From NCBI GenBank assembly GCA_024684355.1, contig JAIKXA010000026.1, positions 1 to 32,569 of the forward strand: a DNA stretch of 32,569 nt, read 5' to 3'. Of this stretch, positions 1,257 to 20,867 are shown piece after piece. Position 1 is the first letter of the stretch. Every line of letters begins with the position of its first letter. The stretch is from Lachnospiraceae bacterium. GTDB lineage: Bacteria; Bacillota; Clostridia; Lachnospirales; Lachnospiraceae. Below the pieces are notes generated by a model. That model ran no database searches. It saw only the letters and a list, made by a program, of their open reading frames with translations, and was not told the origin of the DNA. The position numbers and the translations under genes are program-made.

Positions 1257-2315
1257 TTACATAGCATTTACGATCATCTTCTGAAGTGTAGCAGGATCTG
1301 ATGAAACCTTAAGAGCTTCAGATCTGGTAACGATGCCGTAATGAACGAGGTTAGCAAGGTCATCATTCATGGTATGCATGCCCAGAGACTTTCCTGACTG
1401 GATCATGGAAGGAATCTGGATGGTCTTTGATTCACGAATAAGGTTTGCAATACCTGTGGTAGCAATAAGAACCTCAGTAGCAAGTACACGGCCTGTACCA
1501 TCGGCACGAGGAAGCAGGTTCTGTGTGAATACACCACGGATAACGTTAGCAAACTGAGCACGGATCTGATTCTGACCTTCAAGAGGGCAGGCATCAATGA
1601 TACGTTCAACGGTCTGAGCTGCTGAAGTGGTATGCAGTGTAGAAAGAACCAAGTGACCTGTTTCTGCAGCGGTGATAGCAGCGGAAATAGTTTCGAAGTC
1701 ACGCATTTCACCAACGAGGATGATATCAGGGTCTTCACGGAGGGCTGAACGAAGAGCTACTGAGAATGACTCTACGTCCTTACCAACTTCACGCTGATGG
1801 ATCATAGCCTTGTTATGAGGATATACGTACTCGATAGGATCCTCAATGGTCATGATGTGACGTGCTGTATTTGAATTGATATATTCAACTATAGAAGCAA
1901 GGGTGGTTGACTTACCGCTACCGGTAGGTCCGGTAACAAGGATAAGACCTCTGGGAGTATTAGCCAGATCTTTTACAGCATAAGGAAGACCAAGTTCTTC
2001 GAAAGTGGGGATCCTGTTCTGGAAAAGACGGATGCTGGCTGCCAGGTTATTTCTCTGATGATAAATGTTAGCACGGATTCTGTTTCCGCCGGGAAGCATA
2101 ACACCGACATCAAGATCCTTGCCTGAGCTAACATACTTACGCTGTTCTTCATCAAGGATGGAATAGATCATCTCTCTGGACTCATCGGCTGTAGGTACAT
2201 CGTCCAAAATCATAAGAGTTCCGAAACGTCTGATGGCAAGATTGGTACCAACTGTAATATGGATATCGGAACATTCGTTATCTCTGGCATACTTCACCAG
2301 TTCTTCAAAAGTCAT
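1257..2315 (-). CDS. pilT: PilT-type twitching motility ATPase
   Basis: 352 aa; Walker A GPTGSGKSTT, Asp box MTIEDPIEYV, Walker B RSALREDPDIILVGEMRD, His box ETGHLVLSTLHT. Confidence 0.95.
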   Translation of the reverse strand: MTFEELVKYARDNECSDIHITVGTNLAIRRFGTLMILDDVPTADESREMIYSILDEEQRKYVSSGKDLDVGVMLPGGNRIRANIYHQRNNLAASIRLFQNRIPTFEELGLPYAVKDLANTPRGLILVTGPTGSGKSTTLASIVEYINSNTARHIMTIEDPIEYVYPHNKAMIHQREVGKDVESFSVALRSALREDPDIILVGEMRDFETISAAITAAETGHLVLSTLHTTSAAQTVERIIDACPLEGQNQIRAQFANVIRGVFTQNLLPRADGTGRVLATEVLIATTGIANLIRESKTIQIPSMIQSGKSLGMHTMNDDLANLVHYGIVTRSEALKVSSDPATLQKMIVNAM

Positions 2316-2559: not shown

Positions 2560-4296
2560 ATGCCGGATAAAAGATTTTCATGTTTGATTAAATTCGCCGC
2601 ATCATTTGTTTTTGTCATAGTTTTGCTTCTTTTATCAGCTGCTGTTCCCATTAAAGCTGAAAACGAAGACAAGGTTCGCGTTTCTACGGCTAAGGAGCTT
2701 AAGCAGGCCATAAAACAGTCTGATGTTAAAACTATCGTTTTCAGAACAAAAGCATACCTTACATTTACAATAAAATCCGATAAAGCAGCGGCCGGCAAGG
2801 AACTTATCATTGATGCCCCCAATGCGGTTATAACAAATAAGGCAAAATTCAAGTCGATAAATATCATAAGCGGAGATTACACTGAAGCGGTTTCGGGCAA
2901 TTCCATAACCATATCGAAATGGAATGTCAAGTTTTCGGTAGCAAAAAAGAAAACTGTGAAAGAGTTATCGTTTAAAGAAAGTCTTGATTTTGTGGACGTT
3001 ACTAAAATCGTGGTGAAAAAAGGAGCAAAGATAAAGAAAGTCATTCCTTGGATAATTGATGACGGATCGGTTGATTTTTCTTATAATTCTAAAAAACGGA
3101 CATGGACCTATTCAATCGGAGAATCCGATTTGTCAAGTTATAAACGTACATTTACGTATAAGTTTGATAAATCCGGACGTCTGATCAGTTATGTCAGAAA
3201 GACGGCGGATATCCCTTCGGGTTATATCATTATAGAAAAGAATAACTATAAATATAACTCTGACGGTTATATGATCAGATTCACCTCAGATTCTGATGAT
3301 GAACATTCAAAATCTGAATATGTATATGATGCTAAGAACAGACTTATCAAAAATGTAAATAAAGCTGACGGAAAAACCAAAGAGATCATATACTCTTATG
3401 ATTCTAAGGGCCGGTTGATACACGAAGAATCAAGAAATGCCGATGATGCTGAAGATTTTATGATCGTTGATTATAAATATGATAAAGAAGGCAGGAACAC
3501 AGAACAGATTTATAAAGACAGTACAGGCGAATTAACAGTTTCCGAAATAATTGACTCTAAAGGGTTTGCGGTTGAGACGGGTTGGAGTTTTGAAGGCGAA
3601 TATGCACCACAATACAGCATATTTAATGATAAAGGAGATCTGATAAGGGTTTACAAACCTGTTCGATTACATGTATCTTACGAAGATTATTATTATGACA
3701 TTTTCGGTGAACGTCTGTACACTGTTTATGGTGATACCGAAGAAAGTGAACTGAAAAAACCGGGATCTAGGATCGTCAATTTTGTAAATGACAGATTTGG
3801 TAAATCCGAGCTTGTTGATATTAAGATTTTGGATGAGAAGAATAATATCATTGCAGGTACATTTAAGTATCCCGATGCCGGATTTACGTTTACCGTATCA
3901 AATTCGGAGATATCCGGAAATGATGATCTGCAATATTTCTGTGATGATATTTACAGTGATTTTTTAATAAAGTATTATTCGTGGAAAAACGAACAGATTA
4001 AGGATACATTAGAATTTTTCGGCATTAAATCATATAACAGTATTGATGAAAACAATTGCAGCGATGCCAGGTGTTTTTCTATATACGAGAGTAAACTGAT
4101 CACCACTTCCGAGAAGGTAAAAGATGACATAAATCTTGTCTGTAATTTGGTGGCGGATTACAGTTCGTCGAATAGTTCTGTTCCCAAAATACTGAATAAT
4201 TATTCGGTTAAAGTTTATTTATCGGATACAGGGGAGTATCTTGGGGAAAAATCAAAATTCAGTCTTAGTTTAGATGAATTAAGGAGTTTGTTGTGA
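2560..4296 (+). CDS. Secreted protein with beta-helix-like N-terminal part and about five YD/RHS-like repeats
   Basis: 578 aa; Sec signal peptide (KFAASFVFVIVLLLLSAAVPIKAE); repeats YKFDKSGRLISYV, YKYNSDGYMIRFT, YVYDAKNRLIKNV, YSYDSKGRLIHEE, YKYDKEGRNTEQI; SD AAAGGAG. Confidence 0.7.
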   Translation: MPDKRFSCLIKFAASFVFVIVLLLLSAAVPIKAENEDKVRVSTAKELKQAIKQSDVKTIVFRTKAYLTFTIKSDKAAAGKELIIDAPNAVITNKAKFKSINIISGDYTEAVSGNSITISKWNVKFSVAKKKTVKELSFKESLDFVDVTKIVVKKGAKIKKVIPWIIDDGSVDFSYNSKKRTWTYSIGESDLSSYKRTFTYKFDKSGRLISYVRKTADIPSGYIIIEKNNYKYNSDGYMIRFTSDSDDEHSKSEYVYDAKNRLIKNVNKADGKTKEIIYSYDSKGRLIHEESRNADDAEDFMIVDYKYDKEGRNTEQIYKDSTGELTVSEIIDSKGFAVETGWSFEGEYAPQYSIFNDKGDLIRVYKPVRLHVSYEDYYYDIFGERLYTVYGDTEESELKKPGSRIVNFVNDRFGKSELVDIKILDEKNNIIAGTFKYPDAGFTFTVSNSEISGNDDLQYFCDDIYSDFLIKYYSWKNEQIKDTLEFFGIKSYNSIDENNCSDARCFSIYESKLITTSEKVKDDINLVCNLVADYSSSNSSVPKILNNYSVKVYLSDTGEYLGEKSKFSLSLDELRSLL

Positions 4297-4892
4297 GCTT
4301 TGAACCTAATTACAACCTTGACTATGACAGGCGTGAACTCAGGGATAAAATACTGCGTGTAACTGTCAAGGTTTTACTATGGGCTATAGTTCTGGGAGGT
4401 GTGATCTTCGGTGCCTGGGCTATAACCGAATATTGTATTGAAAAAACAAATATGACTGGTAACTCTATGGAGCCTGCACTTTCCGACGGAGAAAAAGTGC
4501 TTGTAAACAGACTGAGCTACAGAAGCGATGATCCGGACCGGTTTGATGTTATTGTATTTAACATTTCGGGTAAAGAACATGATTATTACGGTATCCGCCG
4601 AGTGATAGGCTTACCCGGAGAAAAGGTTCAGATTATTGACGGCTATGTTTATATCAATGATGAGTTTCTGGAAGAGATAAATGATGTTGAACCCATGCAG
4701 GTGTACGGATTGGCAGAATATCCGATATATCTGGATGATGATGAATTCTTTGTACTCGGTGATAACAGGAATGACTGTATAGACAGCCGATATACAGGTA
4801 TGGGCAATGTATCCAGAGAAAGTATAATCGGAAAAGCCTGGATCAGGCTGGATGGACTTGCCATTATAAGCGGATTAAATAAGAAAGATTAA
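4293..4892 (+). CDS. Signal peptidase I family protein (S26), non-canonical at the Lys position
   Basis: 199 aa, GTG start overlapping the upstream stop; N-terminal TM, NSMEP serine box (S58), IRRVIGLPGEKV, LGDNRNDCIDSRYTG box. Confidence 0.9.
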   Translation: MSFEPNYNLDYDRRELRDKILRVTVKVLLWAIVLGGVIFGAWAITEYCIEKTNMTGNSMEPALSDGEKVLVNRLSYRSDDPDRFDVIVFNISGKEHDYYGIRRVIGLPGEKVQIIDGYVYINDEFLEEINDVEPMQVYGLAEYPIYLDDDEFFVLGDNRNDCIDSRYTGMGNVSRESIIGKAWIRLDGLAIISGLNKKD

Positions 4893-4896
4893 GAAA

Positions 4897-6420
4897 ATGG
4901 GATTGTTTAAGCTTTCAGTTAGTTACAGCGAAAAAGAACAGGCTAAGGCATACGGTGCCAAATGGGACGCTATAAAAAGAACCTGGTATTTTATGGGTGA
5001 TGATCTGCCGAAGGAGCTTGAGAGATGGTATGAAGCACCTGAGACAGAGACTGAAGCTGCGAAAGCCTCAGGCAGTTCAGCAGCGGATGTGTTACCTGAC
5101 CGGTTTAACAAATATAAAACCGTATCGGAAGTAAATCGTCTGATAGCGGATAAATATGCTCATGTTCCGGATTTTTACGATATTCTGGTAAAGGGTGAAG
5201 TTACAAATTTCAGTGGGAAAAAGGGCAATCATTATTATTTTGATATTAAAGATGATAATTCACTTTTGCCATGCAGACTTTGGGATTCGGTGGCAGAACA
5301 GGTACTGAAATTCGAACTTGAAAAAGGGCAGTACGTTGCTATAGCCGGCAGACTTGAGTTTTTTGAAAAATTCGGACAGACTCAACTTATCGTTCGAGAA
5401 ATTGAAAACATCGGAGAAGGCGAAAGCAACCTTGCATTATTAAAGCTTAAAAACCGTCTTCAAGCGGAAGGCTTGTTTGATCTGATCCATAAGAAACAGA
5501 TACCGGGACATCCTGAACAGGTAGGTATTATAACATCTAAGAACGGACAGGCAATAAAGGATATCTGCAAGGTAGCAAAAAAGCGTAATCCGTATGTACA
5601 GCTTATACTGTTCCATGTGAATGTTCAGGGAGTTAATGCAGTAAACACCATAGTTCAGGGAATAAAAAAACTGGATGAAATGGGACTGGACTCTATAATA
5701 GTCGGACGTGGCGGCGGTTCGGATGAAGAACTGAATGTGTATAATGACGAGACGATAGTCAGAGCCGTGTTTGAAGCAAAAACTCCGATTGTTTCTGCCG
5801 TAGGACACGAAGGGCACTGGACGCTGATAGATTATGTTGCGGACAAGCGTGTGGCTACACCTTCGGAGGCGGCTGAAGAAACAATACCCGATGTGATGGC
5901 TGACATTAAAAGGGTTGAACTTCTTTCAAAAGCCATACAAGATTCCATGCAGGGACTGCTTAAAAGCAGAAAGCTGCTGCTTGATAGCATGATAGCCAAC
6001 CTTTTGAAGAATAGTCCGCAGAACAGACTTAGGGAAAACCGGGAGAGATTAAAGCATCTGTCGGAAATGATGGATTTTAATATCAGAGCTGCTTATAAAT
6101 CTTATGTCGATGCAACGGATATGCTTGCGGAAGGTATAAGCAGCCGCTTTAAGCTAATCTATCAGAGATTTAAGGACCTGCCGGATGAGTATCTTGAAAA
6201 GATCAAAATAAGCGCTGATCAGGCTTTTGAACGGAGATATCACAGACTGGAGGTTTTGCTCACGGAGCTTAACGGACTATCACCTACGGCGAAGCTTGTA
6301 GGAGGCTTCGGATATGTAACAAAGGATGGCAGACCTGTTAAAAACGCCGTCGATGTTAAGCAGGGTGATAATATTAACATTAAGATGCATGACGGAGATA
6401 TTTCTGCTAACGTTATATGA
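4897..6420 (+). CDS. xseA: Exodeoxyribonuclease VII large subunit with DUF5710-like N-terminal extension
   Basis: 507 aa; OB-fold region ILVKGEVTNFSGKKGNHYYFDIKD, GRGGGSDEELNVYNDE, VGHEGHWTLIDYVADKRVATPSEAAE; followed by xseB. Confidence 0.9.
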   Translation: MGLFKLSVSYSEKEQAKAYGAKWDAIKRTWYFMGDDLPKELERWYEAPETETEAAKASGSSAADVLPDRFNKYKTVSEVNRLIADKYAHVPDFYDILVKGEVTNFSGKKGNHYYFDIKDDNSLLPCRLWDSVAEQVLKFELEKGQYVAIAGRLEFFEKFGQTQLIVREIENIGEGESNLALLKLKNRLQAEGLFDLIHKKQIPGHPEQVGIITSKNGQAIKDICKVAKKRNPYVQLILFHVNVQGVNAVNTIVQGIKKLDEMGLDSIIVGRGGGSDEELNVYNDETIVRAVFEAKTPIVSAVGHEGHWTLIDYVADKRVATPSEAAEETIPDVMADIKRVELLSKAIQDSMQGLLKSRKLLLDSMIANLLKNSPQNRLRENRERLKHLSEMMDFNIRAAYKSYVDATDMLAEGISSRFKLIYQRFKDLPDEYLEKIKISADQAFERRYHRLEVLLTELNGLSPTAKLVGGFGYVTKDGRPVKNAVDVKQGDNINIKMHDGDISANVI

Positions 6421-6677: not shown

Positions 6678-7574
6678 ATGTCAAAGACCGATAATATAAA
6701 AGGATACGAAAACAAAACAATTAACTGGTATCCCGGACACATGGCAAAGGCCAAGAGGATGATGCAGGAAAGTATCAAACTTATTGATGTAGTGGTCGAG
6801 ATACTTGATGCAAGAATACCGTTAAGCAGTAAAAACCCTGATATAGACGAACTGGCTAATGGTAAGTACAGAGTGCTTCTGCTTAACAAATCCGATATGG
6901 CTGACGATAAAAAGACCGATGCCTGGAAGAAGTATTATGAAGACAAGGGATTCTTTGTCAGCATAGTTAATTCAAAAACCGGGGCCGGAGTAAAGGCAAC
7001 TACAGAGGTTATACAGAAAGCCTGTCAGGAAAAGATAGAACGTGACAGAAAAAAAGGCATACTTCAAAGACCTTTAAGAGCTATGATAGCAGGTATACCC
7101 AATTCGGGTAAATCCACATTTATCAATTCATTTGCGGGAAAAGCCTGCACAAAGACCGGAAACAAACCCGGAGTGACAATAGGTAAACAGTGGATCAGGA
7201 TCAATAAGAATGTTGAACTACTTGATACACCCGGTATCCTTTGGCCTAAGTTTGAGGATCAAAAAACCGGACTTCATATCGCATTTATCGGTTCAATAAA
7301 TGATGATATATTATACCCGGAAGATATGGCTTTAGAACTGATCAAGATATTGATAAATGATTACCCGGGCATATTAAAAGAAAGATACGATATAGATGCA
7401 TCGGATGACGATGCTGTCAAAATCCTTGAATCGATCGGACAAAAACGCGGCTGTCTCAAAAAGGGCGCCGAGATCGATATGGAAAAGGCATCAAAAGTGC
7501 TGATAGATGATTTCAGATCGTTAAAACTTGGAAGGATAACGCTTGAAGTTCCTCCGGAGGTGACCGAGAAATGA
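6678..7574 (+). CDS. rbgA: Ribosome biogenesis GTPase YlqF/RbgA
   Basis: 298 aa; NWYPGHMAKAKRMM start, circularly permuted G motifs NKSD...GIPNSGKST...DTPG; next to rnhB. Confidence 0.95.
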   Translation: MSKTDNIKGYENKTINWYPGHMAKAKRMMQESIKLIDVVVEILDARIPLSSKNPDIDELANGKYRVLLLNKSDMADDKKTDAWKKYYEDKGFFVSIVNSKTGAGVKATTEVIQKACQEKIERDRKKGILQRPLRAMIAGIPNSGKSTFINSFAGKACTKTGNKPGVTIGKQWIRINKNVELLDTPGILWPKFEDQKTGLHIAFIGSINDDILYPEDMALELIKILINDYPGILKERYDIDASDDDAVKILESIGQKRGCLKKGAEIDMEKASKVLIDDFRSLKLGRITLEVPPEVTEK

Positions 7575-8242
7575 CCAAAGCCGAAGAAAAAGAGCAAAAA
7601 GCACTGGCTAAGCTTGAAAAAGAGCGTGCCCGCATAGAGGGCATGAAGGAATTCGAATATAAATATGCGGAATTTCAATTTATCTGCGGTATAGACGAAG
7701 TCGGACGCGGCCCGTTTGCCGGACCTGTCGTAGCAGGTGCCGTTATATTACCGAAAGATGAAGAAATACTTTATCTGAACGATTCAAAAAAACTGTCCGA
7801 GAAAAAGAGAGAAGAGCTTTACGATATAATAATGGATAAGGCTGTAGCTGTGGGACTCGGTATGGAGACCAATGAAGTCATAGATGAGATCAATATAAAA
7901 AGAGCTACCCACAGTGCCATGAGAAAAGCAATAAGGAATCTCAAAGACCCCAAAACCGGAGAAATGTTTACACCGGATATTCTGCTGGTGGATGCAGAGC
8001 ATATTCCCGATGTTGACATCAGACAGGTTGGCATAATCAAAGGCGATGCAAAGAGTATTTCCATAGCGGCCGCCAGTATAATTGCTAAGGTAACCAGGGA
8101 CAGGATGATGGTGGAGTATGACAAGATATATCCGGGTTATGACTTCGCAGGCAATAAAGGATACGGTACCGCCGCACACATCGCCGCCATAAAAGAGCTT
8201 GGCATGACACCGATCCACAGAAGGACATTTGTGCATCTGTAG
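7571..8242 (+). CDS. rnhB: Ribonuclease HII
   Basis: 223 aa; ICGIDEVGRGPFAGPVVAGAV, DSKKLSEKKRE, SIAAASIIAKVTRD; ATGA overlap with rbgA. Confidence 0.96.
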   Translation: MTKAEEKEQKALAKLEKERARIEGMKEFEYKYAEFQFICGIDEVGRGPFAGPVVAGAVILPKDEEILYLNDSKKLSEKKREELYDIIMDKAVAVGLGMETNEVIDEINIKRATHSAMRKAIRNLKDPKTGEMFTPDILLVDAEHIPDVDIRQVGIIKGDAKSISIAAASIIAKVTRDRMMVEYDKIYPGYDFAGNKGYGTAAHIAAIKELGMTPIHRRTFVHL

Positions 8243-8395: not shown

Positions 8396-8671
8396 ATGGT
8401 TAAAAAGGTAAAGACAGCCGTGGCACTCGGCTTTGAGCCCGGAGATCAGGCGCCGAAGATCATTGCCACAGGTAAGGGATATCTGGCCGAAAAGATCATA
8501 GAAGAAGCAAAAAAATCAAATGTTCCTCTGCATCATGATTCTAAGCTTGCGGAAACACTGTCCAGGCTTGATTTTGGAGATTACATTCCGCCTGAGCTAT
8601 ACGAGGCTGTAGTTGAAGTGCTTATGTTTGTAGATAAAGTTGATGCTATCAAGCAGAAGATGGATCTTTGA
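8396..8671 (+). CDS. FlhB/EscU cytoplasmic-domain-like protein (YlqH/FhlB-like)
   Basis: 91 aa; AVALGFEPGDQAPKIIATGKGYLAEKIIEEAKKSNVPLHHDSKLAETLSRLDFGDYIPPELYEAVVEVLMFV matches FlhB after the NPTH site; no TM region. Confidence 0.88.
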   Translation: MVKKVKTAVALGFEPGDQAPKIIATGKGYLAEKIIEEAKKSNVPLHHDSKLAETLSRLDFGDYIPPELYEAVVEVLMFVDKVDAIKQKMDL

Positions 8672-16454: not shown

Positions 16455-18173
16455 ATGGAATATATAATTGGTGCTGCCATCGTAATAATATGCATATTTG
16501 CGGGCGGATATTATCTGCAGAAAAAAGGTGAGAAAAAACTTGAAAAGCGGATAAGAGAAAACTTCGGAACTGTACCTGATATAGAGTACAAACAGGAAAA
16601 GTATGATTCAATAGGTTATTATTTCAGGGAAATGGCTGAAAGGCAGCCGGATGATAATGAGCATTATACAGTTGATGATATCACCTGGAATGACCTTGAT
16701 ATGGATGACGTTTTCCTTACTATGTGCAACACCCAAAGTTCTATCGGTGAGGAATATCTGTATTATCTTTTAAGGACACCGGTATTAAACGAGGAAACAC
16801 TTGCCAAAAGAGAAAAGCTGATAAGATTTTTTGAAAAGGATCCGGAAACAAGACTCGGATTACAGGTGGAGCTTGCTAAAGCAGGTAAGATCTCGGGCGT
16901 GTCGGTATATGAGTATGTTAGCCGCCTTGACAGTCTGAAACCGGAGAATAATTTCAAGCACTTTACCTGTATTTTACTGATGATCGCAGCTATAAGCATG
17001 ATATTTGTGTATCCTGCGATAGGTATAGTCGGTACGCTCGGAGTTTTTTTCTACAATGTAATAACATACTTTAAGCGCAAAAGCGAGATAGAGAACTACT
17101 ATCAGGTAGTTGCATATATTCTTCGTACGCTCGACCTTTCACAGAAGATATGTGCCAGGAAGAATGAAGAACTTAAGCCTTATACCGAGCTGCTTTCTGA
17201 GGAGCTTAAAAGATACAGGAATGTAACAAAAGGTGCCGGTCTTATAGTATCTAAAAAAAGCAACGGAGACATATTGGAGGTTGCCCTTGATTATCTCAGG
17301 ATGGCCACCCATATAGATCTTATAAGATTCAACATTATGCTGGCCAGACTTAAAGATAAAAAGGAAGATTTTGATAAGATATATGAGATCATAGGTATTA
17401 TAGATGCCATGATCGCCGTAACATCCTACAGAGCATTAATGGGTGACTGGTGCGAACCGGAGCTTAAAAAAGCTGAAAAAGATCCGGCATCGGGACTTGT
17501 ACGGCATAATGGGATAGAGACGGAGAATGTTTATCATCCGATGATATCGGAACCGGTAAAGAATAATTTTAAGGAATCGGGCAACGTACTGCTCACCGGT
17601 TCGAATGCTTCCGGTAAATCAACATTCATAAAGACGGTTGCTATCAACGCCATACTGGCTCAGTCAGTACATACCTGCATGGCGGATGATTACAGGGCAT
17701 CATTTTTCAAATGCATGACGTCAATGGCGCTTACCGATAACCTTTCGGGCGGAGAGAGCTATTATATCGTCGAGATCAAATCATTAAAGAGAATATGTGA
17801 CAGCTTAAATGATGATGTACCGCTGCTTATATTTGTGGACGAAGTACTTCGGGGAACAAATACCCTGGAACGTATCGCGGCATCCTCAAGGATACTGTCG
17901 TATATGGGAAACAGGAACTGCATGCTTTTCGCGGCAACACATGATATTGAGCTGACATATATATTGGAAAAAAGCTTCAGACTTTATCATTTTGAGGAAA
18001 GAGTTGAAGATGACGGCGTGTTCTTTGATTATACCTTAAGGGACGGAAGGGCTGTTACCAGAAATGCGATACTGCTTCTAAAGATGATGGGGTTTGACAA
18101 GAGTATTACTGATGCTGCCGAAAAAAGCGCAGATGAATTTGTAACTACCGGAGAATGGAAGCCGGAATCTTAA
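16455..18173 (+). CDS. Membrane-anchored MutS-family ATPase (MutS domain V-like)
   Basis: 572 aa; N-terminal TM (YIIGAAIVIICIFAGGYYL), central TM hairpin (CILLMIAAISMIFVYPAIGIVGTLGVFFYNVITYF), Walker A GSNASGKSTF, signature NLSGGESYYIVEI, Walker B LLIFVDEVLRGTNTLER. Confidence 0.85.
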   Translation: MEYIIGAAIVIICIFAGGYYLQKKGEKKLEKRIRENFGTVPDIEYKQEKYDSIGYYFREMAERQPDDNEHYTVDDITWNDLDMDDVFLTMCNTQSSIGEEYLYYLLRTPVLNEETLAKREKLIRFFEKDPETRLGLQVELAKAGKISGVSVYEYVSRLDSLKPENNFKHFTCILLMIAAISMIFVYPAIGIVGTLGVFFYNVITYFKRKSEIENYYQVVAYILRTLDLSQKICARKNEELKPYTELLSEELKRYRNVTKGAGLIVSKKSNGDILEVALDYLRMATHIDLIRFNIMLARLKDKKEDFDKIYEIIGIIDAMIAVTSYRALMGDWCEPELKKAEKDPASGLVRHNGIETENVYHPMISEPVKNNFKESGNVLLTGSNASGKSTFIKTVAINAILAQSVHTCMADDYRASFFKCMTSMALTDNLSGGESYYIVEIKSLKRICDSLNDDVPLLIFVDEVLRGTNTLERIAASSRILSYMGNRNCMLFAATHDIELTYILEKSFRLYHFEERVEDDGVFFDYTLRDGRAVTRNAILLLKMMGFDKSITDAAEKSADEFVTTGEWKPES

Positions 18174-18194: not shown

Positions 18195-20867
18195 GTGAAA
18201 GAACAAAAGTATGAGCTGACACCGCAGATGCAGCAATATATGGGGATCAAAAACGGATATAAGGACTGTATCCTGTTTTACCGTCTGGGTGATTTTTATG
18301 AGATGTTTTTTGAAGATGCGAAAACTGCATCAAAAGAGCTGGAACTGACCCTTACCGGAAAAAACTGCGGTCTGGAGGAAAGGGCTCCGATGTGCGGAGT
18401 GCCGTTTCACTCATCGGAAGGCTATATATCAAAGCTTGTTGAAAAAGGATACAAGGTTGCCATATGCGAGCAGATGGAAGACCCTGCTCTGGCAAAGGGC
18501 CTGGTAAAAAGAGAGGTAATAAGGGTAGTAACTCCCGGTACCAATATCAATCCTCAGGCACTTGATGAAACCAAAAATAACTACCTGATGAGCATATATT
18601 ATCTCGATGATACATTCGGCATGGCAAGCCTCGATGTATCTACAGGTGATTTCTTTATACAGGAGTTTGAAGGCCTGCAGAAAATACAGGATGAGGTTTA
18701 TAAGCTTACTCCTGCGGAGATCATATGCAATGAAGCGTTCCTTATATGCGGAATGGAGATCAACGTATTAAAGGAAAAGCTCGGAATATCAGTAGGCACG
18801 GTTTCAGAGGATTACTTTGATTTAAGAAAATGCGAAAATGTCCTTTCGGGACATTTTAAATGTAAAAACTGTGCGGAACTCGGAATAGATATTTATCCTG
18901 CAGCCAAAGCTGCAGCAGGAGCGGTACTGAGGTATGCACTTGAAACCCAGATGATCTCTCTTGATCATGTAACTCAGATCATACCTTACGTTTCCGGTAA
19001 GTTCATGCTTATAGATTCCCAGACAAGAAGGAACCTGGAGCTGACCGAAACAATGCGTGACAAGAACAAAAAGGGTTCTTTACTTCATGTGCTTGATAAA
19101 ACCGGTACCGCTATGGGCGCCAGAATGCTCAGGTCGTTTGTGGAGCAGCCGCTGCTTGAAAAAGAAGAAATAGAAAAAAGACTTGATGCCGTGGAAGAGC
19201 TTGGACAGAATGTTCTGGTACGTGAGGAGATAAGGGAATACCTTAATTCGATCTATGACTTGGAAAGACTTGCCGGCAGGATAAGTTACCGCAATGCCAA
19301 TCCGAGGGATATGATAGCTTTTTCTTCGTCAATCGCCATGATCGCTCCCATTAAGCATCTGATGTCGGATTTCAGATCCGTACTTTTGAAAGAACTTTAT
19401 GAGGGCTGCGACGTACTTGATGACTTAAAGGAAATGATCGATACCACGATCAACGACGATCCGCCGATCAGTATCAGAGAAGGCGGCATAATAAGGGACG
19501 GATACAGTTCTGTGATCGACGAGTTAAGATCTGCCAGATCCGAAGGTAAAAACTGGCTTGCCGAGCTTGAAGCAAGAGAAAAAGAAAATACCGGGATAAA
19601 GAATTTAAGAGTAAAGTATAACAAGGTATTCGGGTATTATCTTGAAGTAACCAATTCGTATAAAAACATGGTACCTGAAAACTGGATAAGAAAGCAGACT
19701 CTTGTACAGGCTGAACGATATACCACGCCGGAATTAAAGGAACTGGAAGATAAGATACTTCATGCTGAGGACAGGCTGGTATCGCTGGAGTATGATATTT
19801 TTACGGAACTGAGGGAAAAGATCGCTTCAAACATCGTAAGAATACAGAAAACAGCAAAGAAGATCGCGTATATCGACAGCTTATGCTCGTTAAGCTTTAT
19901 AGCTGAACGAAACGGATATGTAAGACCTCATCTTAATGAGGAAGGGATAATAGATATTAAAGACGGCAGACACCCTGTAGTTGAAAAAGTATTGGGTGAT
20001 ACCGGATTTATCGCAAACGATACGTATCTCGATAACGGGTCCCAGCGTATATCGATAATCACAGGTCCGAATATGGCAGGTAAATCAACATATATGCGTC
20101 AGACGGCACTGATAGTGCTTATGGCACAGATGGGAAGCTTCGTGCCTGCTTCATCGGCAGATATAGGTATAGTGGACAGGGTATTTACCAGAGTGGGAGC
20201 ATCGGATGATCTTGCCAGCGGTCAGAGTACCTTTATGGTTGAAATGAACGAGGTTTCCCAGATCATGAGAAACGCTACGGCAAAGAGCCTGCTCATACTT
20301 GACGAAATCGGCAGGGGAACCAGTACGTTTGACGGACTGGCAATAGCCTGGGCGGTAGTGGAGTACATAAGCGATGAAACAAGGCTTGGAGCAAAGACAC
20401 TTTTTGCCACACATTATCATGAGCTCACCGAACTGGAAGAAAAGCTTACATGTGTAAAGAATTTCAGTATAGCGGTAAAGGAACAGGGGGACAGCATAAT
20501 CTTTTTAAGAAAGATCGTCAAAGGCGGCGCGGATAAAAGTTATGGTATACAGGTGGCCAGACTTGCAGGCCTGCCGGAAGAGATACTTAAGAGGGCAGGC
20601 GAGATAGTTGAGGTATTGAGTCTGAATGATATCAATTCGCATGAAAGAAGCGAGATGATAAAGACAGCAAGTTCTGTCAGTGAGAAATACCGGCAGCCGG
20701 TCCAGAAAAGAAAGAAGCAGGATCCCGATCAGCTGTCGCTGTTTGCGGAAAGAAAATATGATAATATCCTTGATGACATCAGGGAACTTGATATCACATC
20801 CATAACACCGATACAGGCATTAAATAAGCTCTCCGAACTTCAGGAAGAACTGAAAAACCAGTCATAA
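18195..20867 (+). CDS. mutS: DNA mismatch repair protein MutS
   Basis: 890 aa, GTG start; GDFYEMFFEDA mismatch-binding motif, TGPNMAGKSTYMRQ, LDEIGRGTSTFDGLAIAWAVVE, C-terminal QLSLF. Confidence 0.98.
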   Translation: MKEQKYELTPQMQQYMGIKNGYKDCILFYRLGDFYEMFFEDAKTASKELELTLTGKNCGLEERAPMCGVPFHSSEGYISKLVEKGYKVAICEQMEDPALAKGLVKREVIRVVTPGTNINPQALDETKNNYLMSIYYLDDTFGMASLDVSTGDFFIQEFEGLQKIQDEVYKLTPAEIICNEAFLICGMEINVLKEKLGISVGTVSEDYFDLRKCENVLSGHFKCKNCAELGIDIYPAAKAAAGAVLRYALETQMISLDHVTQIIPYVSGKFMLIDSQTRRNLELTETMRDKNKKGSLLHVLDKTGTAMGARMLRSFVEQPLLEKEEIEKRLDAVEELGQNVLVREEIREYLNSIYDLERLAGRISYRNANPRDMIAFSSSIAMIAPIKHLMSDFRSVLLKELYEGCDVLDDLKEMIDTTINDDPPISIREGGIIRDGYSSVIDELRSARSEGKNWLAELEAREKENTGIKNLRVKYNKVFGYYLEVTNSYKNMVPENWIRKQTLVQAERYTTPELKELEDKILHAEDRLVSLEYDIFTELREKIASNIVRIQKTAKKIAYIDSLCSLSFIAERNGYVRPHLNEEGIIDIKDGRHPVVEKVLGDTGFIANDTYLDNGSQRISIITGPNMAGKSTYMRQTALIVLMAQMGSFVPASSADIGIVDRVFTRVGASDDLASGQSTFMVEMNEVSQIMRNATAKSLLILDEIGRGTSTFDGLAIAWAVVEYISDETRLGAKTLFATHYHELTELEEKLTCVKNFSIAVKEQGDSIIFLRKIVKGGADKSYGIQVARLAGLPEEILKRAGEIVEVLSLNDINSHERSEMIKTASSVSEKYRQPVQKRKKQDPDQLSLFAERKYDNILDDIRELDITSITPIQALNKLSELQEELKNQS

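What the first reader, a model, noticed from the sequence alone, without database searches (positions are those of the whole stretch)
4293..4892. Signal peptidase I paralog with Arg at the catalytic Lys position
The Ser box is intact (NSMEP, S58), but the second box reads YGIRRVIGLPGEKV (CGC at 4596-4598, R102). In canonical SPase I (E. coli Lep IKRAVGLPGD; B. subtilis SipS VKR-IIGLPGD) the first residue of that KR pair is the general-base Lys. Lys-to-Arg should impair a Ser/Lys dyad. This is either a pseudo-protease or chaperone-like SPase paralog (degenerate paralogs such as S. aureus SpsA and the streptococcal pilus SipA are known), or it uses another residue. The substitution is seen directly; the loss of function is inferred.
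Basis: partly seen in the sequence, partly recalled or inferred. Interest (0 to 1): 0.65.

Follow-up and report, generated by a model that had tools for sequence, protein, structure and literature searches.

The report
Probable dead signal peptidase, kept by selection
This gut bacterium carries, at the usual chromosomal site of the enzyme that trims signal peptides, a copy that has lost a key catalytic residue, yet relatives keep the gene under strong selection, which suggests that the enzyme fold has a second job without cutting.

Summary
Window 4293-4892 encodes a membrane-anchored type I signal peptidase (SPase I, family S26) with the nucleophile Ser58 intact and Arg102 (CGC) where the general-base Lys should be. 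It is not a sequencing error: a syntenic ortholog occurs in all 24 genomes of the genus, and at this position 19 have Arg, 1 Gln and 4 Lys. Five of the Arg orthologs have also lost the nucleophile (4 Gly, 1 Ala). All 35 other S26 paralogs fetched from these genomes keep Ser and Lys. The gene sits at the conserved site upstream of rbgA-rnhB. In about 130 Lachnospiraceae genomes, mostly one per genus, the SPase upstream of rbgA is degenerate in 12 of 116, in scattered clades; the copy between rbgA and rnhB is degenerate in 2 of 91. Outside the family, all 17 upstream copies checked are intact. dN/dS is 0.02-0.08, so this is not a decaying pseudogene. Best reading: a SPase I pseudoenzyme that still folds, with cleavage left to a canonical paralog. 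What it now does is inferred, not shown: probably non-catalytic binding of exported or membrane clients, as proposed for streptococcal SipA. No protein was assayed.

The parts
4293..4892 (+). SPase I (S26) homolog, 199 aa, with Arg at the catalytic Lys position; probable pseudoenzyme
   Evidence: Pfam/NCBIfam hits; 24/24 genus orthologs; AlphaFold model mean pLDDT 93.4 with Foldseek matches to SpsB, SipA and Lep
4320..4436 (+). Long N-terminal helix (residues 10-48 in the model) containing the single hydrophobic membrane span; one-span topology typical of Gram-positive SPase I
   Evidence: DSSP of the AlphaFold model; membrane span read from the sequence, not predicted with a dedicated tool
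4464..4466 (+). Codon 58 (TCT), Ser nucleophile position; Gly in 4 and Ala in 1 of 24 orthologs
4578..4580 (+). Codon 96 (CAT), His invariant in 24/24 orthologs including those without Ser; also present in many intact copies at this site, so not a replacement base
4596..4598 (+). Codon 102 (CGC), Arg at the general-base Lys position (E. coli Lep Lys145 equivalent), in strand 98-106 of the model
4776..4778 (+). Codon 162 (TGT), Cys at the Lys-stabilising Ser of the GDNRxxSxDSR box (E. coli Ser278 equivalent)
   Evidence: role of Ser278 from PMC4049620
4897..6420 (+). xseA (exonuclease VII large subunit with N-terminal DUF5710), next gene; found between the SPase and rbgA only in the window's sub-clade
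6678..8242 (+). rbgA (6678-7574) and rnhB (7571-8242), the conserved neighbours that mark this as the ancestral SPase I site; here they overlap with no second SPase between them

Best explanation
The gene is the resident SPase I of the SPase-rbgA-rnhB locus that has become a catalytically dead but selected protein. The signal-peptidase fold, the membrane anchor and the conserved boxes are kept; the general base Lys became Arg, after which the nucleophile Ser is dispensable and has been lost at least twice in the genus. Signal peptide cleavage is done by a canonical Ser/Lys paralog encoded elsewhere in the genome. The dead copy most likely works by binding, not cutting: it offers the peptide cleft of the SPase fold at the outer face of the membrane to exported or membrane clients. 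The first part (dead and selected) rests on comparison; the binding role is inference by analogy with SipA.
For: Arg in 19, Gln in 1 and Lys in 4 of 24 syntenic orthologs; Gly or Ala at the nucleophile in 5, all of them Arg at the Lys position; 35/35 other S26 paralogs fetched from the genus are Ser+Lys (20/24 versus 0/35 degenerate, Fisher p = 4e-12). In 130 family loci, mostly one genome per genus, Ser loss goes with Lys loss: 5 of 11 Lys-less versus 3 of 196 Lys-bearing copies, p = 8e-6. Strong purifying selection: dN/dS 0.023-0.047 for close Arg/Ser pairs and about 0.08 for the Ser-less pairs, against 0.12-0.22 for the Lys/Ser orthologs. Arg is kept while its codon changes among five synonyms. 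All genus genomes at least 90% complete have two or more S26 matches. The model is confident (pLDDT 93.4, pTM 0.83) and matches SpsB (active) and SipA (inactive).
Against: No enzyme was assayed. Ser58 is still present in this protein and in 15 of 20 Lys-less orthologs, so residual or unusual activity is not excluded. The window's own genome shows only this one S26 gene, but it is only 66% complete, so the canonical partner is inferred from relatives. Nothing here shows a client or a partner. The relatives' genomes are mostly draft, probably metagenome, assemblies. dN/dS by Nei-Gojobori is rough where synonymous sites are near saturation.
Confidence: 0.66

Rival explanations
1. A still active but specialised SPase in which Arg102, or another residue such as His96, activates Ser58, giving slow or narrow cleavage of particular substrates.
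For: Ser58 and most of the GDNR...DSR box are kept in the window; Arg is strongly conserved rather than random at the site; Arg is more frequent than mutation alone would give (10 of 11 Lys losses in the survey are Arg, p about 3e-6 under a simple mutation model).
Against: Arg is also kept in the orthologs that have lost Ser (Gly or Ala), so its conservation does not depend on catalysis. His96 is present in Ser/Lys-intact relatives and in Ser-less ones. The Arg side chain has a pKa too high for a good general base (general chemistry, not tested).
Confidence: 0.14
2. A regulatory subunit: the dead copy pairs with the active SPase I and tunes its activity or placement.
For: In 9 of the 12 degenerate family loci an intact SPase lies just downstream of rbgA, so the two are likely to be expressed together.
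Against: In the window's genus the intact copies lie elsewhere in the genome, not in this operon; bacterial SPase I is regarded as active alone (general knowledge); no interaction was tested.
Confidence: 0.12
3. Relaxed constraint only: after a second SPase took over, this copy is drifting and will be lost, with no new function.
For: Degeneration arises in scattered lineages of one redundant copy, and both catalytic residues and the Ser278 equivalent erode.
Against: 24 of 24 genomes of the genus keep an open, full-length gene at the same site and dN/dS is 0.02-0.08; drift would give frameshifts and a ratio nearer 1.
Confidence: 0.06

Closest known systems
Streptococcus pyogenes SipA (PDB 4n31, 4k8w)
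   Same: SPase I fold and peptide cleft with the Ser/Lys dyad replaced (Asp and Gly) and no detectable peptidase activity (PMC4049620); found by both sequence and fold search.
   Different: SipA is needed for pilus polymerisation; here no sortase or pilin was found among the neighbours scanned, the gene is at the housekeeping rbgA-rnhB site, Ser is kept, and Lys is replaced by Arg.
Staphylococcus aureus SpsA
   Same: Dispensable inactive SPase I lacking two conserved catalytic residues, in a genome with an active one, SpsB (review PMC12445088).
   Different: Not aligned here. In the window's genus the dead copy is at the ancestral site and the active copies are elsewhere; the Arg signature and the repeated losses are what was seen in Lachnospiraceae.
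S. aureus SpsB (PDB 4wvg-4wvj)
   Same: Best Foldseek match at 27-30% identity; same SPase I catalytic-domain fold.
   Different: SpsB uses Ser36/Lys83 and is essential (PMC12445088); here the Lys is Arg.

Membership tests
Type I signal peptidase homolog (Pfam PF10502, S26) | Profile match over the catalytic domain | tested here: met
   111.7 bits, residues 31-184, profile 5-165 of 168; TIGR02227 120.2 bits
Active SPase I (Ser/Lys dyad enzyme) | Ser nucleophile in the SM box | tested here: met
   Ser58 present in the window; lost in 5 of 24 orthologs
Active SPase I (Ser/Lys dyad enzyme) | General-base Lys in the KR box | tested here: not met
   Arg102; Lys in 35/35 paralogs at the same column
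Active SPase I (Ser/Lys dyad enzyme) | Signal peptide cleavage | not testable with these tools
   needs an assay
SPase I fold | Predicted structure matches solved SPases | tested here: met
   Foldseek probability 1.00 to SpsB, SipA, Lep; E 4e-9 to 3e-4. Query-normalised TM-scores are modest (0.32-0.57), in part because the solved chains lack the long anchor helix or are fusions
SipA-type SPase-like protein | Both Ser and Lys replaced | tested here: not met
   Ser58 is kept in the window, though 5 genus orthologs lack both
SipA-type SPase-like protein | Located with sortase and pilin genes | tested here: not met
   Neighbours are xseA, rbgA, rnhB; no sortase or pilin among the window genes scanned
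S. aureus SpsA-type inactive SPase | Orthology with SpsA by sequence | not tested
   SpsA sequence was not fetched or aligned

The most novel reading that the evidence does not exclude
In Lachnospiraceae the SPase I at the rbgA locus carries a second, non-catalytic function (for example holding or sorting exported proteins at the membrane) that is older than the loss of cleavage. This would explain why the dyad has been lost many times independently while the protein is kept under strong selection, and why Arg, a charge-preserving residue, takes the place of Lys.
Probability: 0.3. Interest if true: 0.72.

Novelty: new variant of a known kind. Interest (0 to 1): 0.5.

Why it matters
Inactive SPase I homologs are known as single cases (SpsA, SipA). 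Here is a whole family of gut bacteria in which one SPase gene has repeatedly lost catalytic residues at a fixed site while, at least in the window's genus, the protein is kept by selection. That gives natural replicates, including intact, Arg-only and Ser-less orthologs within one genus, to ask what SPase I does besides cutting. It also warns that annotation pipelines name such genes 'signal peptidase I' (TIGR02227 equivalog) although cleavage is doubtful.

Tried and rejected
Sequencing error: rejected, since 19 genomes have Arg and CGC is three changes from AAA or AAG. Decaying pseudogene: rejected by full-length orthologs and dN/dS. Replacement Lys or His in the pocket: no column gains a conserved Lys in Lys-less orthologs; His96 is not specific to them. 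Pilus factor like SipA: no sortase or pilin nearby. Link to the upstream 578-aa gene: no homolog of it was found beside the orthologs, so it is not a conserved partner. Paper searches found no description of SPase I pseudoenzymes in Lachnospiraceae; a paper on S. aureus type I signal peptidases cited by the review is not held.

Full report
The observation. The ORF 4293-4892 encodes a 199-residue protein with an N-terminal hydrophobic helix and a full S26 domain. Ser58 sits in GNSMEP; codon 102 is CGC (Arg), in YGIRRVIGLPGE, and in the alignment it occupies the column of the general-base Lys. The reading is correct as stated.

Is it an artefact? No. The window is one contig (C45) of a genome of 1.94 Mb in 182 contigs, 66% complete. 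All 24 genomes of the genus, the window's included, have this gene, the other 23 at 49-86% identity, in each case followed by rbgA and rnhB, with xseA inserted before rbgA in the window's sub-clade. The Lys column reads Arg 19, Gln 1, Lys 4; the Ser column reads Ser 19, Gly 4, Ala 1. The 35 other S26 proteins fetched from the same genomes all read Ser and Lys. The named contigs behind L088 and L092 have the same lengths as two of the genus contigs and are titled Lachnospiraceae bacterium, so the family is taken to be Lachnospiraceae.

Order of events. On a FastTree tree of 252 SPase domains the 24 orthologs form one clade (support 0.97). The four Lys orthologs form one clade inside it (0.99); Gly at the Ser position is confined to one group of four (0.74) and Ala is one tip. 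Both Ser losses lie within Arg lineages. Because outgroup copies at this site are mostly Ser/Lys, Lys is taken as ancestral; whether it was lost once with a reversal, or two or three times in the genus, is not resolved, as the deep nodes are weak.

The wider pattern. In many Lachnospiraceae the order is SPase (U), rbgA, a second SPase (D), rnhB. In 130 family loci taken around rbgA, mostly one genome per genus, U is Ser/Lys in 104 and degenerate in 12 (5 Ser/Arg, 4 Ala/Arg, 3 Ala/Lys); D is intact in 89 of 91 (Fisher p = 0.025). The named and best-scoring loci, chosen by similarity and so not an unbiased sample, add Asn/Ala, Tyr/Glu, Tyr/Gly, Asp/Asp, Ser/Ala, Ser/Ser, Ser/Leu and more Arg cases, among them Hominisplanchenecus faecis. 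On the tree, degenerate copies fall into 20 separate clades, one of them a D copy; this number depends on a tree with weak deep nodes and on a partly selected sample, and should be read as 'many'. Outside the family, 17 of 17 SPases found upstream of rbgA in other Clostridia are Ser/Lys.

Is it selected? For close pairs, dN/dS is 0.023 (G007-G020), 0.025 and 0.047 in the window's group, and 0.078 and 0.081 for Ser-less pairs; the Lys-type pairs have 0.215 and 0.120. Pairs with the window itself are saturated at synonymous sites and give no ratio. Arg102 is encoded by five different codons and stays Arg, also in the Ser-less orthologs. So Arg probably has a role of its own, structural or in ligand binding; this is inference.

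How it may work. The AlphaFold model is confident (pLDDT 93.4) and has the SPase strands, with Arg102 in strand 98-106. Foldseek finds S. aureus SpsB, S. pyogenes SipA and E. coli Lep. SipA keeps the peptide cleft without the dyad, shows no peptidase activity, and is proposed to bind a key component at the cell surface (PMC4049620). By analogy the protein here probably binds exported peptides or proteins at the outer face of the membrane. Shown: sequence state, conservation, selection, predicted fold. Inferred: loss of cleavage. Proposed by analogy: the binding role.

Who does the cutting? All genus genomes at least 90% complete carry two or more S26 matches, and those examined outside this locus are Ser/Lys. 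In the window's own incomplete genome only this gene was found, so the partner is presumed to lie in the missing third.

Comparison with the known. It is an SPase I homolog by profile and fold, but it fails a defining feature of active SPase I (the Lys). It resembles SpsA and SipA in kind and differs in location, in the Arg signature and in the repeated, family-wide occurrence.

Noticed in passing
window 4897-6420: Exonuclease VII large subunit with an N-terminal DUF5710 domain, inserted between the SPase and rbgA only in the window's sub-clade of the genus.
   Followed up: partly
window 2560-4296: 578-aa secreted-looking protein with weak RHS-repeat similarity, its stop overlapping the GTG start of the SPase gene by 4 bases; no homolog seen beside the orthologs.
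   Followed up: partly
window 8396-8671: Stand-alone 91-aa protein matching only the C-terminal part of FlhB (PF01312, profile 261-335), in the rnhB-yraN region.
   Followed up: no
window 1257-2315: PilT-like T2SSE ATPase gene on the opposite strand, 90-97% identical in several neighbours of the sub-clade, next to the SPase locus.
   Followed up: no
window 16455-18173 and 18195-20867: A 572-aa protein matching only MutS domain V in Pfam, directly before the mutS and mutL genes.
   Followed up: no
L115, L194, L144, L130, L099: A group of Lachnospiraceae with SPase U copies in which dyad positions are replaced by unlike residues (Ser/Ala, Asn/Ala, Tyr/Gly, Asp/Asp, Tyr/Glu), with an intact SPase copy in the same locus.
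   Followed up: partly
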